6,448 nt of DNA from Pseudomonadota bacterium (GTDB lineage Bacteria; Pseudomonadota; Gammaproteobacteria; Steroidobacterales; Steroidobacteraceae): the NCBI GenBank assembly GCA_021808195.1, contig JAKBCE010000138.1, positions 1 to 6,448 on the forward strand, given 5' to 3'. The notes under the pieces were generated by a model. It searched no databases and had not been told where the DNA came from. It worked only from the letters and a program-made list of their open reading frames with translations. Below, in pieces: positions 1,377-6,265 of the stretch; within the stretch, counting starts at the first letter, position 1, and each line of letters opens with the position of its first letter. The position numbers were made by a program, and so were the translations under genes.

Positions 1377-1453
<77 letters not shown>

Positions 1454-1586
1454 ATAAGTCAAAGGCTTGCGCGGTAAATCCGGGTCCGCCGGATCCCATC
1501 CGCCCTTCCGGGACTGATGGGGGACTCAAGCCACCCCCACTCATCGGTCCCTCAGCACAGGACCGCGCGGGCAACGGGCCCGTACC
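1454..1586. other. Inverted-repeat-rich junction segment after the tRNA
   Basis: These 133 noncoding bases contain four GC-rich inverted repeats. ATCCGG/CCGGAT lies at 1478-1483 with 1489-1494. A long stem pairs 1510-1519 with 1542-1551 (ten pairs including one G-T), continued by GGGG/CCCC at 1520-1523 with 1535-1538. CGGTCC/GGACCG lies at 1545-1550 with 1560-1565. CGGGC/GCCCG lies at 1568-1572 with 1578-1582. The long stem and CGGTCC/GGACCG share bases 1545-1550, so they cannot form together. No T-tract follows on the plus strand. Candidate roles are tRNA 3' processing or termination, a relic of the hsdR terminator, or protein sites at a mobile-element end. Confidence 0.5.
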
Positions 1587-1921
1587 CTATTGGTTGGTGA
1601 TCGCATACACCAAGTCGCCCACGAAGCGCTTGAACGATTCGTTCTCGACCAACTGCTTGTAGACCGCGTGTCGTCTGTCAGCAAGTGCTGCATCACCTTG
1701 GCTAGCGCCTGGTCGTGCGCCATGCGCGCGGTGTGCAGCGTGTTTTTCTTGGCATCCTGGTAGGCCGCGTAGGCAGCGACCTTCGGCGCGATGTCCTCGC
1801 GAATGCGTTTGGCGACCCGATCGGTGTCGGTAAACAAGGTACCGAACTGCTCGTTGAAGGTCTTCAGAATATTGCGCAGTCGATCCAACTCAGGCTCGCT
1901 CTTCCGCCCGCCGGCCGAAAT
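1587..1921 (-). pseudogene. hsdR: HsdR C-terminal relic, truncated and frameshifted
   Basis: On the minus strand, 1921 down to about 1667 encodes a peptide containing GRKSEPELDRLRNILKTF, then FNEQFGTLF, REDIAPKVAA and AHDQALAKVMQHLL. This is the recognisable C-terminal helical region of type I restriction endonuclease subunit HsdR, the motor and nuclease subunit of the EcoKI/EcoR124-like complex. Near 1664-1669 the frame breaks. Reading resumes in another frame as VYKQLVENESFKRF then VGDLVYAITNQ, ending at the family's natural C-terminus with TAG at 1587-1589. One missing base explains the shift. Only about 110 residues of a protein of usually 800-1000 remain. The nuclease and helicase parts, and hsdM and hsdS, are absent here. 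The piece is certainly not functional. Family resemblance is from memory of conserved HsdR C-terminal sequence. Confidence 0.82.
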
Positions 1922-1967
1922 CCCCCTCCCGCGCAGCGACGCGCCGCCTTCGCCACTTCTCTCAGGC

Positions 1968-1993
1968 CTGATCGAGTGCTTGCGGGCGAACCG
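1968..1993. repeat. 26-bp direct repeat, copy 1
   Basis: The 26 bases beginning CTGATCGAGTGCTTG and ending GCGAACCG are identical to 3661-3686, in the same orientation. Identity stops at both ends (1967 C against 3660 G; 1994 G against 3687 C). Read on the minus strand in the frame used by the DUF2274 gene, this copy encodes the same final residues (VRPQALDQ) and one further codon before TGA. It therefore resembles a detached 3' end of that gene. It abuts the hairpin at 1994-2012. Confidence 0.9.
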
Positions 1994-2012
1994 GGCTTGG
2001 TCCCCTCAAGCC
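1994..2012. repeat. Inverted repeat abutting repeat copy 1
   Basis: GGCTTG (1994-1999) and CAAGCC (2007-2012) form a perfect 6-bp stem around the loop GTCCCCT, starting on the first base after the 26-bp repeat. Copy 2 of the repeat also has a palindromic element on its same side, although the sequences differ. Confidence 0.6.
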
Positions 2013-2080
2013 ATGTAACCGCCTCGAACCCTCTCATCCCTGCACGCCGGAGGGCGGGAGGTGCCAATTTTCGCTCCTGG

Positions 2081-2107
2081 CTCAGGGGCTTGCACGGCGA
2101 ACCTGGC
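2081..2107. repeat. Diverged partial third copy of the repeat motif
   Basis: CTCAGG followed by GCTTGCACGGCGAACCTGGC (2088-2107) resembles the CTCAGG...GCTTGCGGGCGAACCGGGC arrangement at 1961-1996. It has about ten bases fewer between the two blocks and a few mismatches. This could be a decayed copy or a chance similarity in GC-rich DNA. Confidence 0.35.
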
Positions 2108-2159
2108 GACGGGATTCTGAACTGGCTCGATCCGAGGGAGCCCGGAAGCGACTCGGAAG

Positions 2160-2211
2160 TTATAGGATGCCGTAATTATCTGTTTCTGCTATATTTATCA
2201 TTGTTTATAGG
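2160..2211 (+). promoter_or_regulatory. AbiE promoter with flanking TTATAGG repeats
   Basis: An extended -10 element, TGC-TATATT (2187-2195), lies in an AT-rich island and predicts a start near 2202, giving a leader of about 25 bases before the antitoxin ATG. No good -35 is seen, consistent with an extended -10 promoter. Direct repeats TTATAGG at 2160-2166 and 2205-2211 (start-to-start 45 bases) bracket it, one upstream and one over the early transcribed region. AbiEi-family antitoxins are known to repress their own promoter, so these repeats are candidate operators; that assignment is inferred. Confidence 0.5.
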
Positions 2212-2226
2212 TCGTCTGTTTGCGCC

Positions 2227-2640
2227 ATGACCAGGAAGCCCCTCACCATCCGAGATCGCATCGCCGAGCGCATCCGTCGCACGCGCAAGACGGATGTCTT
2301 CCTGCGCGAGGATTTCGCCACCTTCGGGGCCTACGATGTCGTCGGCCGCGAGCTGCGCAAGCTGGTCGGCGAAGGACTCCTCGTCCAGGTGGGCTATGGC
2401 CTCTACGCGCGCGCGAAGCCCTCGGTGCTGTCGGGCAAGCCGATTCCGGTCACCCCTCTCATCGACATTGGCTACCAGGCGCTACGCCGCCTGGGCTATT
2501 CACCGCAGCCGAGCCGGGCCGCCCGGGACTACATCGAGAGACGCACGACACAGGTGCCCGCCGGCGATCGCATCGCCGTGCCCGGTGCGCGCGTGAAACG
2601 CAAGATCGTATTCGGGCCGCGCGTCATCGAGTACACATGA
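2227..2640 (+). CDS. DUF6088/AbiEi-like antitoxin and transcriptional repressor
   Basis: This 137-residue protein fits the DUF6088 / AbiEi-antitoxin family, the first gene of AbiE type IV toxin-antitoxin and abortive-infection modules. Residues about 10-60 read as a winged helix-turn-helix: FLREDFATFGAYDVVGRELR, then KLVGEGLLVQVGYGLYARAK with the characteristic GYGLYA wing. The rest (60-137) is a small C-terminal domain ending RKIVFGPRVIEYT. It would bind its own promoter (AT-rich island at 2160-2211) and neutralise the downstream toxin. The ATG at 2227 fits the domain start. The nearest Shine-Dalgarno-like sequence, ATAGG at 2207-2211, is weak and 15 bases away. The stop overlaps the toxin start as ATGA (2637-2640), implying coupled translation. 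It is shorter than classical AbiEi (about 200 residues), as DUF6088 members usually are. Family assignment is fairly sure; operator binding is inferred. Confidence 0.82.
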   Translation: MTRKPLTIRDRIAERIRRTRKTDVFLREDFATFGAYDVVGRELRKLVGEGLLVQVGYGLYARAKPSVLSGKPIPVTPLIDIGYQALRRLGYSPQPSRAARDYIERRTTQVPAGDRIAVPGARVKRKIVFGPRVIEYT

Positions 2641-3620
2641 AGCGGCTGACGCAGGCGCAATCGGAGCTGATTGACGCCTTCCTCGCCGAACACGGCGCGC
2701 GCGTGTCCACGGCACAGCTCGAAAAGGACTTTCTCATCTCCGAGGTGTTCTCGGCCTTCACCGCGCCGGTCGTGTACCGCGAGTATGAGGCGAAATTCGT
2801 CCTGTGCGGCGGCACGGCGGTATCCAAAGCACACCGCTTCACCGAGCGAATCTCCGAGGATGTCGACCTGCGGGTCATCGTCCCAACCGGATTGAGTCGC
2901 TCCGCTCAGAAGCGACTTCTGAGCCACGTCAAGGCCGAAGTGCTCGATCGCTTACGCCAACAGGGATATGACATTCCTGATCAGACCGTCAAAGCGGGCA
3001 ACGAGAACCGCTACATCGCGATCCTGCTGTCGTATGAATCACTCTATCCGCCCGACCAGGCGCTACGCCCGGAACTGCTGATCGAGATCAGCGCGCGCTC
3101 CCCGATCCTGACTCCTGTGGAGTGTGGCTACGATACCATCGTCAACGAACTGCTCGGGCGCGCCGAGCGCAGCGGCTCGATCGCATGTCTCGACATCCGC
3201 GAGACCATCGCCGGCAAGAACGCAGCCTTGCTGCGACGATGGTCGGCGCGTCTGCGCGGCGCCGGCCGGGTGTTCGAACTGGGCAACGCCCGCGATGAAA
3301 ATATCGTCAGACACATCTACGATCTCGGGCGCATCTTCGAGCACTTTCCGCGGGAGTTGACCGATGTGGAGGCGGGCCGACTGGCTCGAGAACTCCTGCT
3401 TCAGGACGCCCTCGAATTCGGGGGCCAAGACCCAGGGTTCAGGGATGCTCCGATCGAGCGGGCACGGGAAGCGTTGAACGATCTTGCGGCCAATAACGAG
3501 GCCAGGCAGTGGTACGAGCGCTTCACGGCGGCGATGGTGTACGGCGTGATTCCTCCCTTCGACGATGCGATGGGACGGATTCTCAAATTCGCAGACGCGT
3601 GGGTTCCGAGCGGCGGATGA
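2637..3620 (+). CDS. AbiEii/AbiGii-family nucleotidyltransferase toxin
   Basis: This 327-residue protein has the layout of the AbiEii toxin, a polymerase-beta-fold nucleotidyltransferase. Some characterised relatives modify tRNA and arrest growth, which is protective during phage infection. Visible core: FVLCGGTAVSKAHRF (GGT at 58-60), SEDVDL with the paired metal-binding Asp75 and Asp77, a later acidic position in LLIEIS (Glu150), and the family motif RETIAGKNAALLRRW (188-202, Lys194). The C-terminal helical region includes NIVRHIYDLGRIFEHF. The start is the ATG inside the antitoxin stop (ATGA). The same frame is open upstream to 2220, but that part is a shadow of the antitoxin gene. There is no strong ribosome site of its own, so expression probably depends on the antitoxin. 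It ends 34 bases from the converging DUF2274 gene. All expected catalytic residues are present and it looks intact. Its substrate is unknown. Confidence 0.88.
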   Translation: MKRLTQAQSELIDAFLAEHGARVSTAQLEKDFLISEVFSAFTAPVVYREYEAKFVLCGGTAVSKAHRFTERISEDVDLRVIVPTGLSRSAQKRLLSHVKAEVLDRLRQQGYDIPDQTVKAGNENRYIAILLSYESLYPPDQALRPELLIEISARSPILTPVECGYDTIVNELLGRAERSGSIACLDIRETIAGKNAALLRRWSARLRGAGRVFELGNARDENIVRHIYDLGRIFEHFPRELTDVEAGRLARELLLQDALEFGGQDPGFRDAPIERAREALNDLAANNEARQWYERFTAAMVYGVIPPFDDAMGRILKFADAWVPSGG

Positions 3621-3654
3621 CCACCAAACCATTGGACATCCCGATAATCCGCGG

Positions 3655-3912
3655 TCACGGCTGATCGAGTGCTTGCGGGCGAACCGCTCGCGAGCGCTCG
3701 CGCCGCATCAGCGCCTTGAACGCTTTGTCGCGCAGGATGAACTGCGTGAGCATGTGGGGGATGAGATCGGCCGCCAGCACCGTTTCGCCCCAGGTCTCAC
3801 TGTGCAGCGCCGCATAGCGGTCGAGCTGGGTCTTGAGACCTACGGGTAAGGTGATGGTGAGTTTCAGGGTATCGGTGCTGGGCAGGGGACCTAAGCGCAG
3901 CTTCGTGTTCAC
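3655..3912 (-). CDS. DUF2274 protein, last gene of the trb operon
   Basis: This 85-residue protein matches the DUF2274 family, small proteins of unknown function found directly after trbI in Tn4371-type conjugative elements. The family core is visible: LRLGPLPSTDTLKLTITLP (5-23), LKTQLDRYAALHSETWGE, then LIPHMLTQFILRDKAFKA. The pattern resembles a ribbon-helix-helix-like small protein, but no function should be assumed. It starts with GTG at 3912, overlapping the trbI stop as GTGA. Its Shine-Dalgarno GGGAGAG (3926-3920) lies in the inverted repeat GGAGAG-A-CTCTCC (3913-3925), which could hide the site until trbI is translated. The last codons (VRPQALDQ) lie in copy 2 of the 26-bp repeat, so the tail after about residue 68 may have been acquired or altered by recombination. 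Confidence 0.82.
   Translation of the reverse strand: MNTKLRLGPLPSTDTLKLTITLPVGLKTQLDRYAALHSETWGETVLAADLIPHMLTQFILRDKAFKALMRRERSRAVRPQALDQP
3661..3686. repeat. 26-bp direct repeat, copy 2, inside the DUF2274 gene 3' end
   Basis: Identical to 1968-1993 over 26 bases and in the same orientation. Here it supplies all but the last sense codon of the DUF2274 gene's end. The two copies enclose the whole AbiE module, with 1667 bases between them. Overlapping palindromes start at its right edge. Confidence 0.9.
3685..3702. repeat. Overlapping perfect palindromes next to repeat copy 2
   Basis: CGCTCGCGAGCG (3685-3696) is a perfect 12-bp palindrome and CGCGAGCGCTCGCG (3689-3702) a perfect 14-bp one, sharing eight bases. 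They encode part of the Arg-rich tail of the DUF2274 protein (RRERSRA). The first shares two bases with the 26-bp repeat. Arg/Ala codons in GC-rich DNA can produce such palindromes by chance, but the position next to the repeat is notable. Confidence 0.6.
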
Positions 3913-5249
3913 GGAGAGACTCTCCCTTCAAGGGCTCGAGAATCCTCGTTCGCGGGGTAGGGACCGAGCACCAGGTCCTTGGTCACGATCACCCGCACCG
4001 GATATCCAGGCCGGATGGTGATCGTCGGCTGGATGTTGAGATTGCGCCGGGTGATTTCCTGGCCGACCTGGTTCACGGTGCCCTGCAGGCCCTGGAGCGA
4101 GGCGTAGAGCAGGGACTGCGTGCCGCCCAATTGACCGGGCACGGCAAGCTCCGCTGCGGCCCCGAGGAGCGTCGAGACCGCGGCTCCCGCGACCAGGCGA
4201 TTCCAGTGCCAGTCGACCCGATCCTCGAGCCCGGTATAACCCTCGGTATCGGTCCCCGGCAATCGATCGAGCACGATCGATGACCCGTCCGGCAGAATGA
4301 GGCGTGTCCAGACGAGGAGCACCCGGCGCTGCCCGTAAGCCACCTGGCTGTCGTATACGCCGAGCAGGCGGGACCCCTGAGGGATGAGCAGAATCCGCCC
4401 CGTCACCGTGTCGTAGACGTTTTCCGTGACGGTGGCGATGATGTTGCCCGGCAGGTCCGAGTCGATGCCGGTGAGGAGCGCCGCCGGGATCACGGTGCCG
4501 GCCAGGAGCTCAAACGGCGAGCGCGGCGTGATGAGATGTCCCGTCGCGTAGATTTGGGCTTCGGCTTGCCCACTCAGAAACGCCTCCTTCTGCGCCTGAG
4601 CGCTCTGCGGGGCGCCCGCGCGCGCTGGAATTGCTCCCTCGCCGCTCAGCCCCTCGCTCACGTGCGCGGCAATCGCCTCGGCCGCCGCAAGACTCGACGA
4701 CTGCGCCACAGCGCCGGTGGACGCTGTGCTCGCCTCCGGGCTCGGCTGCTCCCGCAGCTGCACGAAGAGCTGCGCCTTCAGGGCATCCTGCGCCTCACGC
4801 TGCGCGCGCAGCCGCTCGGCGCGGATCGCGTCCTCCTCGGGACTCGGGGTGAAAGTCGGCCGCTCGGGCAGCTCCGGAATCCCGGCCGCGCGCTCCGCCT
4901 TCACCACCGCCGGACCGAACTCCCCGGCCGGCGCGCCAAGCTGCGGATATGTCCGAACGCCCGCGTAGCTGCGCGGCATGGCCGCAAGCCCTTGCGCATG
5001 GGCGACCTGCGTCGGCCCGGTGGCCTGCGGCGGCGCGATCGAACTGCGCGGCCTCGGCCGCCGCAGGCCGATCATCGCGGCGATCAGCACGGCAATCGCA
5101 AAGATCGCGAGGATCGCTGCCAGCGTCTTGCGATTGAGCCGCGTGACCGGCCGCGGCCGCGCCCGCAGCTCCAGCGCCGCGGCGCTCTCCTTCCTCGTCG
5201 CGCTCGGCGGCGCATCGCTCTGCGGCGCGCCCTCAGGACCTTCAGTCAC
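3909..5249 (-). CDS. trbI: TrbI, VirB10-like type IV secretion core protein
   Basis: This 446-residue protein is the VirB10-like subunit that spans both membranes in the type IV secretion core complex. It links the inner-membrane energy proteins to the outer-membrane ring. A short basic cytoplasmic segment (1-42) leads to one transmembrane helix (about 43-61, TLAAILAIFAIAVLIAAMIG). A long Ala/Pro/Gln-rich periplasmic linker follows (about 65-230) with a charged helical patch at 138-165. The conserved C-terminal barrel (about 235-431) contains LAGTVIPAALLTGIDSDLPG, GRILLIPQGSRLLGVYDS and LILPDGSSIVLDRLPGTD. A hydrophobic stretch at 351-369 matches the outer-membrane antenna region. NLNIQPTITIRPGYPVRVIV is typical of the TrbI end. 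It starts with GTG at 5249, overlapping the trbG stop as GTGA, with ribosome site GGGAGG (5261-5256). Length is normal and it appears intact. Confidence 0.94.
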   Translation of the reverse strand: MTEGPEGAPQSDAPPSATRKESAAALELRARPRPVTRLNRKTLAAILAIFAIAVLIAAMIGLRRPRPRSSIAPPQATGPTQVAHAQGLAAMPRSYAGVRTYPQLGAPAGEFGPAVVKAERAAGIPELPERPTFTPSPEEDAIRAERLRAQREAQDALKAQLFVQLREQPSPEASTASTGAVAQSSSLAAAEAIAAHVSEGLSGEGAIPARAGAPQSAQAQKEAFLSGQAEAQIYATGHLITPRSPFELLAGTVIPAALLTGIDSDLPGNIIATVTENVYDTVTGRILLIPQGSRLLGVYDSQVAYGQRRVLLVWTRLILPDGSSIVLDRLPGTDTEGYTGLEDRVDWHWNRLVAGAAVSTLLGAAAELAVPGQLGGTQSLLYASLQGLQGTVNQVGQEITRRNLNIQPTITIRPGYPVRVIVTKDLVLGPYPANEDSRALEGRVSP

Positions 5250-6265
5250 GTCCCGCCTCCCTGACCCGCCGCGCTCGGCCGCAGGTCCGTGCGCGTGATG
5301 CGCACGATCTGCTGGGGCGCAGCGCCTAAGCGCAGCTCCGCCTGCGCGAAGAGCCGGTCGACGATGTAGTACGGTGGCCGGACCTGATAGTTGACGAGCT
5401 CGCTCTGGCCCTTAGGTCCCAGGATGAAGAGCGGCGGCATCTCACCCTCACCGATCCCGGGCGGGAATTCGATAAAGACCCTCCGGCCATCATCGAACGC
5501 GCGCACCGGGCGCCAGGAGGGGTGATCGCCCGAGATCGCATACCGAAATCTGAGGCGCGCGACATCGATCCCTGCTGCGACCGGCTGGGCCTCCTCGGCC
5601 GCCGCGTTCCTCGCGCGCAGCGCCACCAGTTGATCGCGCGGATAATCCCACGAAACGGAGGCCATCCAGGTATCCGGGGTCGAGGTGAGCTCGAGGTGAT
5701 AGGTGCGCCGCGAGGTATCGATGACGAGGTTCGTGTGAAGACCGCTCTCAATCGGCTTCACGAGGATATGCACGCACCGCTCCGCGCCCTTGCCGCTCGT
5801 GGTATCGCCGATCACCCAGCGGACCGTATCACCGGCGGAGACCGAGATGAGCTGCTCACCCTTCTCGAGCGCGATATCCGTGACCCGCTCCGGGCTCGTG
5901 TAGACCTGATACAGCGCGCCCGGCGTGTAGGGCCAGACCTGCATCGCATTCACGAACGCCGCTCGCGAGGGTTGGATGAGCGCCGCCGCATTGGCGGCTC
6001 TCACCTGGCTTCGCGGATCCTCAGTCTCCTTCGGCGCGGGAGGGAGCAAGTCCGGTGTCAACTTGAGTTGTCCCGGAAGCGGCAGCGCCTGCGGCACCTC
6101 GATGATCTTCACCGGGGCCGGGGGATTCGCGATGCGCCGCGCCGCGACGAAGTGATCGAGCGAAATGCTGGGCGGCGGACGCGGGCTCGCGCAGCTGGCG
6201 AGCGCGCTGCTCGCGATCATCAGCGCGACGAGAAGCGATGCGGGAAGACGATTCTCTGCAGTCAC
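5246..6265 (-). CDS. trbG: TrbG, VirB9-like outer-membrane core protein with lipobox
   Basis: This 339-residue VirB9/CagX-family protein forms, with TrbI, the outer-membrane ring of the conjugative pore. The N-terminus is an export signal with hydrophobic core (about 9-21) and a lipobox LASC (22-25), so Cys25 is probably lipidated. A Pro-rich linker (about 26-90) follows. The VirB9 N-domain (about 105-205) is marked by VWPYTPGALYQVYTSPERVTDI, GDTVRWVIGD, HILVKPIESGLHTNLVI and RTYHLEL. The C-domain (about 237-328) is marked by LRFRYAISGD, RVFIEFPPG, PPLFILG and VNYQVRPPYYIVDRLFAQAELRLG. It starts with GTG at 6265 inside the trbF stop (GTGA), with ribosome site GGAG seven bases upstream (6276-6273). 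RP4 has a separate lipoprotein, TrbH, between trbG and trbI; none is present here, so this lipobox may take over that anchoring role (inference). Confidence 0.93.
   Translation of the reverse strand: MTAENRLPASLLVALMIASSALASCASPRPPPSISLDHFVAARRIANPPAPVKIIEVPQALPLPGQLKLTPDLLPPAPKETEDPRSQVRAANAAALIQPSRAAFVNAMQVWPYTPGALYQVYTSPERVTDIALEKGEQLISVSAGDTVRWVIGDTTSGKGAERCVHILVKPIESGLHTNLVIDTSRRTYHLELTSTPDTWMASVSWDYPRDQLVALRARNAAAEEAQPVAAGIDVARLRFRYAISGDHPSWRPVRAFDDGRRVFIEFPPGIGEGEMPPLFILGPKGQSELVNYQVRPPYYIVDRLFAQAELRLGAAPQQIVRITRTDLRPSAAGQGGGT

What the first reader, a model, noticed from the sequence alone, without database searches (positions are those of the whole stretch)
1968..3686. Exact 26-bp direct repeat encloses the AbiE module
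Bases 1968-1993 and 3661-3686 are identical in the same orientation, with identity ending sharply at both sides. A 26-base exact match at this spacing is most unlikely by chance. Between the copies lies exactly one complete unit, promoter plus antitoxin plus toxin. Copy 2 is the 3' end of the DUF2274 gene; copy 1 keeps that reading frame and also reaches a TGA one codon later, so it looks like a displaced copy of the gene end. This fits a cassette whose insertion duplicated or re-created the end of the trb operon, or homologous capture of cargo. It could also let the module be lost by recombination.
Basis: partly seen in the sequence, partly recalled or inferred. Interest (0 to 1): 0.75.

Follow-up and report, generated by a model that had tools for sequence, protein, structure and literature searches.

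The report
Duplicated gene overlap flanking defence cargo
The 26-letter repeat on either side of a phage-defence gene pair is the doubled overlap of two facing genes in a mobile element: inserting cargo there without breaking either gene requires a second copy of the overlap, and relatives show the same spot empty or holding other genes.

Summary
The repeat is real: 1968-1993 and 3661-3686 match 26/26, none expected by chance. In 4 of 4 empty relatives (L003-L006) a LysR-type gene converges on DUF2274 and the ORFs overlap by exactly 39 bp; the 26-mer lies inside. Copy 1 is the native 3' end of that LysR gene (truncated here at 1907), copy 2 the native 3' end of DUF2274. The same seam holds AbiE here, an HD-domain gene in L007, an HNH-like gene in L008 and an AbiE deletion scar in L009; each time LysR and DUF2274 have separate 3' ends. 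Weaker similarity past the overlap suggests a longer, eroded duplication. L005 and L040 are recombinants with breaks in DUF2274 and LysR, so the seam is traded between elements by homologous exchange. How the first doubling arose is not shown. No tested ORF between the copies is a recombinase. Excision across the repeat is neither shown nor excluded; the one loss scar seen is imprecise. Modest interest: a cargo hotspot with a neat anatomical explanation.

The parts
1377..1453 (+). tRNA-Pro (cgg), context; its last 44 bp recur in L002
1587..1912 (-). stretch matching the 3' end of a type I restriction hsdR gene; LysR homology starts at 1907, so the two remnants are fused about there
   Evidence: 75.8% DNA identity to an annotated hsdR on a Sphaerotilus plasmid
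1907..2018 (+). 3' remnant of the convergent LysR-type gene; stop drifted (TGA to TGG), now ends at TAA 2016-2018
   Evidence: near full-length open frames in L066 (L039), L061 (L053) and L067 (L054)
1962..2000 (+). copy 1 of the 39-bp LysR/DUF2274 overlap (exact core 1968-1993)
2001..2038 (+). eroded stub of the DUF2274 3' part carried with copy 1
   Evidence: 21 of 38 matches at a one-base shift in the window (best other register 19); 22 of 38 in register in L054
2227..2640 (+). abiEi antitoxin gene (DUF6088)
2637..3620 (+). abiEii toxin gene (nucleotidyltransferase)
3655..3693 (-). copy 2 of the 39-bp overlap (exact core 3661-3686), 3' end of DUF2274
3655..3912 (-). DUF2274 gene, at the end of the trb operon
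3909..5249 (-). trbI
5246..6265 (-). trbG (Pfam CagX)

Best explanation
In this family of trb-type mobile elements a LysR-type regulator gene and the DUF2274 gene at the end of the trb operon converge and overlap by 39 bp (shown in 4 of 4 cargo-free loci). Cargo has been placed between them, and in the loci where both sides are visible LysR and DUF2274 then end in separate copies of the old overlap (clear in the window and L007; by position and weaker similarity in L008 and L009). A plain insertion into a 39-bp overlap would cut one of the two genes, so only arrangements with a doubled overlap keep both (inference). The filled or empty seam is then traded between related elements by homologous recombination, with LysR and DUF2274 as homology arms (two recombinants shown; that this is how AbiE arrived here is inference). 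The first doubling most likely came from a seam-spanning duplication or an unequal exchange between two co-resident elements, which would leave stubs of both genes beside the cargo; this step is inferred. In this window LysR was later truncated by a deletion joining it to hsdR.
For: One copy and a 39-bp overlap in 4 of 4 empty loci (L003-L005 are 90-92% alike in LysR, so not 4 independent cases); overlaps of 50 and 65 bp in the distant pairs L027 and L028, so overlap looks ancestral. Separate ends in window, L007, L008, L009; two copies also in L010. AbiE lies beside LysR in five other contigs: L040, L043, L044, L053, L054. Similarity beyond the overlap: L008 26 of 38 in register (other registers at most 19), L007 20 of 24 on the other side, L054 22 of 38. 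Recombinants: L005 matches L003 at 175 of 203 informative sites in LysR and 17 of 17 in the first 100 columns of DUF2274, but 183 of 556 over the whole DUF2274-trb block; break near column 111, 0 of 500 permutations as large. L040 LysR is L009-like up to about column 747 (119 of 166), then 8 of 45, compared with L054; 0 of 500. The main ORFs between the copies are AbiE, HD and HNH-like, none a recombinase; short ORFs were not scanned.
Against: The first doubling was not caught in the act. Similarity past the overlap is weak in single loci. In register on the LysR side L007 (14 of 38) and L043 (12) show none and L009 has 18 against 17 elsewhere. In local alignments to the other gene the shuffles reached the score in 46 of 200 (L009), 25 (L043), 25 (L044), 9 (L040), 6 (L053), 5 (L007), 4 (window) and 0-2 (L008, L010, L039, L054) on the LysR side; on the DUF2274 side in 128 (window), 129 (L001), 52 (L002), 58 (L009), 47 (L010) and 0 (L007, L008). 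So the AbiE loci give no significant LysR stub beyond the overlap. L008's two copies aligned to each other do not exceed shuffles. L010 has an unidentified gene, not LysR, left of copy 1, and only a DUF2274 stub. Only 3 of 10 distant DUF2274 loci (L021-L030) show LysR within about 1.5 kb, so the pairing is not universal. Tree support is low (0.51-0.74 at key LysR nodes, 0.41-0.72 in TrbI), so one doubling with later loss cannot be told from several. The loci are metagenome bins with several seam loci per bin.
Confidence: 0.66

Rival explanations
1. Site-specific integration: the overlap is an attachment site, and single-gene cargo units integrate there by a recombinase supplied in trans, as islands integrate into gene 3' ends.
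For: One site, direct repeats, restored gene ends, and 3 of 3 cargo types pointing the same way as LysR.
Against: No recombinase among the main ORFs of the units; similarity to a flanking gene runs past any short core in L007 and L008; the copies are only 70% (window) and 68% (L007) identical over the aligned stretch.
Confidence: 0.15
2. A chance tandem duplication of about 100 bp at the seam came first, made a spare intergenic gap, and unrelated cargo later landed in it by ordinary illegitimate or IS-mediated insertion.
For: Explains stubs of a neighbouring gene beside the cargo and their variable lengths.
Against: No locus with a bare tandem seam was seen; L009 comes closest but keeps an AbiEii tail.
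Confidence: 0.2
3. Transposon-type target-site duplication.
For: Direct repeats at both ends.
Against: 39 bp or more is far longer than usual target duplications (recalled), and the two genes between the copies are not a transposase.
Confidence: 0.03

Closest known systems
Variable regions (hotspots) of Tn4371-family ICEs
   Same: A trb-type transfer scaffold with changing accessory genes at fixed places (PMC2789088, 12 of 16 passages seen).
   Different: The passages seen place that variable region ahead of traR/traG, not after trbI; the word search of that paper found LysR 0 times.
Islands that integrate at gene 3' ends (SGI1-like islands at trmE or dusA)
   Same: Insertion at the 3' end of a gene (PMC8409611, title and start of abstract in a listing); that the end is restored by a direct repeat is recalled.
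   Different: Here two convergent genes are concerned at once, and no integrase was found in the unit.
AbiE type IV toxin-antitoxin / abortive infection system, also found on ICEs
   Same: Adjacent AbiEi and AbiEii genes; AbiE on an ICE is published (PMC11062541, abstract and outline).
   Different: Not in the genes but in the placement at an overlap seam.

Membership tests
AbiE type IV toxin-antitoxin | AbiEi-type antitoxin gene followed by an AbiEii nucleotidyltransferase toxin gene | tested here: met
   PADLOC AbiEi 6.9e-43 and AbiEii 3.1e-72; Pfam AbiEii 1.1e-28
AbiE type IV toxin-antitoxin | toxicity neutralised by the antitoxin | not testable with these tools
   needs an expression assay
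ICE with trb-type transfer system | trb mating-pair genes | tested here: met
   TrbI 3.2e-66 and CagX 3.8e-69
ICE with trb-type transfer system | integrase, relaxase and att sites in one element | tested here: inconclusive
   window too short, integrase and relaxase not looked for; 44 bp of the tRNA-Pro end recur in L002
Gene-end-targeting integrative island | direct repeat that leaves the interrupted gene with an intact end | tested here: met
Gene-end-targeting integrative island | own recombinase gene in the unit | tested here: not met
   main ORFs between the copies are AbiE, HD or HNH-like; short ORFs not scanned
Gene-end-targeting integrative island | excised circle | not testable with these tools
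   no reads held

The most novel reading that the evidence does not exclude
The overlap of the two convergent genes is a true attachment site for integrase-less, single-operon defence cassettes, moved in fixed orientation by a recombinase encoded elsewhere: a minimal cassette system outside integrons.
Probability: 0.1. Interest if true: 0.75.

Novelty: new variant of a known kind. Interest (0 to 1): 0.42.

Why it matters
It gives a concrete, testable rule for where a mobile element can take on cargo without harm: at an overlap of two convergent genes, provided the overlap is doubled. Such doubled overlaps would be a sequence signature for finding cargo sites, and with empty and differently filled relatives in hand the history of the site can be followed.

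Tried and rejected
Dispersed-repeat reading: rejected for the 4 genomes searched. Displaced DUF2274 end: replaced by the shared-overlap reading. The plasmid collection searched by DNA (1480-4000) gave 5 records and no seam match: one hsdR, two with a 146-bp stretch inside abiEi, two with DUF2274 pieces. By protein, 122 plasmid records hold a DUF2274 relative; 4 of them were opened, other genes follow DUF2274 and no LysR is annotated within 4 kb. Viral contigs: no relative of AbiEii or DUF2274 and no exact 22-mer. Promoter scan of 1900-3800: none. The LysR search (E up to 1e-40) hit 11 of 296 genomes; the distant hits in G085, G144 and G155 and a fragment at a contig end in G004 were not examined. 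Literature: DUF2274 in 0 papers; other searches, listings only except for the two papers.

Full report
Observation. The 26-mer at 1968-1993 and 3661-3686 is exact and does not occur by chance (2 matches with up to 3 mismatches, 0 in 200 shuffles). The window holds, left to right, a polyprenyl synthase gene, tRNA-Pro, an hsdR remnant, a LysR remnant, abiEi, abiEii, DUF2274 (minus), trbI (minus) and trbG (minus).

Relatives. A scan of one-per-species genomes with the DUF2274 protein found 241 stretches matching a pattern, 10 of which encode a relative. Of these 10 loci, 4 are empty (L003-L006), 3 carry AbiE (L010; L001 and L002 end inside abiEii), and 3 carry something else (L007, L008, L009). 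No whole genome of the window itself is held.

What the repeat is. In the 4 empty loci DUF2274 converges with a LysR-type gene (PF00126 and PF03466 in L003), and in all 4 the ORFs overlap by 39 bp; three of the four (L003-L005) are 90-92% alike in LysR. In L003 the overlap codes SGLIECLRARPA-stop one way and SRGARPQALDQP-stop the other. The 26-mer lies inside it. In the window, copy 1 continues the LysR frame (LLSGLIECLRANRA...) and copy 2 ends DUF2274 (...VRPQALDQP). The LysR stop has drifted in both copies: TGG in copy 1, CGA in copy 2, where no LysR needs it. In L027 and L028, whose LysR is 31 and 28% identical to that of L003, the pair overlaps by 50 and 65 bp, which suggests that overlap came first. 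Against a general rule: of 10 distant DUF2274 loci (L021-L030) only 3 show LysR nearby (L026 a fragment, L027, L028).

Cargo at the seam. Gaps between the two genes' stops are 1636 bp in the window, 694 in L007, 1522 in L008 and 143 in L009. L007 holds an HD-domain gene (HD_4, 1.9e-15; no PADLOC match). L008 holds a protein with a region matching PADLOC PDC-M68A at 1.9e-23 and several HNH-type effector models, nothing in Pfam. L009 keeps the tail of abiEii, so AbiE was lost there by an imprecise deletion. AbiEii close relatives (86% or more) occur in 7 of 296 related genomes. LysR lies beside the module in 5 of these 7: G038, G050, G056, G057, and in G001 on a contig (C310) that ends inside abiEi. 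In G004 another gene, without a Pfam match, lies left of copy 1, and in G046 no LysR was found in 16 kb. Several of these copies are truncated.

Extent of the duplication. Similarity goes on past the overlap, unevenly. On the LysR side, 38 columns compared in register with DUF2274 gave 26 matches in L008, 22 in L054, 21 in L053 and L039; window 21, L010 22 and L040 20 at a one-base shift; L044 20 at a two-base shift; L009 18; L007 14; L043 12. The best other registers reach 17-19, so L007, L009 and L043 give no support there, and the AbiE loci are not independent of each other. On the DUF2274 side the last 24 columns before the overlap match LysR at 20 of 24 in L007, 14 in L009, 13 in L010, 12 in L008 and 11 in window, L001 and L002; in local alignments only L007 and L008 beat all 200 shuffles there, while the AbiE loci do not stand out (window 128, L001 129, L002 52, L010 47 of 200 as good; L009 58). 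Aligned to each other, L007's two copies score far above shuffles (54.6 against a maximum of 30.6), the window's (38.8 against 33.0, largely through the 26-mer) and L010's (47.0 against 34.2, a long gapped alignment) above them, L008's (22.6 against 28.2) do not; for L009 the test was void because its windows overlap. I read this as a seam duplication of roughly 90-120 bp whose constrained 39-bp centre is best kept; the length is an estimate.

Exchange. L005 carries an L003-like LysR and 3' two-fifths of DUF2274 on an L007-like trb block; the break falls about 111 columns into DUF2274 (maximum chi-square 201.8, permutation maximum 16.4, 0 of 500 reach it). L040 carries an L009-like LysR whose last part is of the AbiE lineage (0 of 500 against each of L054, L053, L044); its middle third resembles no compared locus closely. 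L009 and the window share 90-97% identity in most of DUF2274-trbI (89% in one 100-column block) while their LysR ends share 62%. Homologous exchange around the seam is thus shown; that AbiE moved this way is the economical inference.

Not a dispersed repeat. In the four genomes behind L001, L004, L005 and L006, 3 of 4 have matches, 6 in all with up to 3 mismatches, and the reversed control pattern has 0; 5 of the 6 lie at a LysR or DUF2274 end, the sixth is L010's copy 1 beside AbiE.

Limits. The loci are metagenome assemblies; one bin (G001) holds five seam loci (L001, L002, L003, L009, L040). Key nodes in the LysR tree have 0.51-0.74 support and in the TrbI tree filled and empty loci are interleaved with 0.41-0.72, so the number of doublings is open. 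In the LysR tree L040 was merged from two segments. Neither excision nor function was tested. What is said about usual target-duplication lengths is recalled. No print report of this seam was found in the searches, which were narrow.

Noticed in passing
window 1541-1912: An hsdR 3' remnant is fused to the LysR 3' remnant, pointing to a deletion between tRNA-Pro and the seam that removed most of LysR.
   Followed up: partly
window 1410-1453; L002:4815-4858; L064:9692-9727: The tRNA-Pro 3' end recurs as 44 identical bp in L002, and 36 bp of it (window 1408-1443) in L064, possibly the element's attachment site.
   Followed up: partly
L010:3954-5135; L064:752-2005: A Fic-family gene (Pfam Fic and Fic_N in L010) lies on the DUF2274 side of the AbiE module in L010; L064 has a similar ORF there (not scanned).
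   Followed up: partly
L043, L044, L061, L062: AbiEii similarity stops at different points (about residues 197, 206, 48 and 59) within the contig, so many AbiE copies look decayed.
   Followed up: no
P0001-P0057: The C-terminal tail of DUF2274 (RPQALDQP or close to it) recurs in many of the 85-aa relatives, as expected if it is held by an overlapping gene; 83-aa forms have a shorter tail.
   Followed up: no
L010:7144-7410: A reading frame without a Pfam match, not LysR, abuts copy 1 almost exactly at the left edge of the 26-mer.
   Followed up: partly
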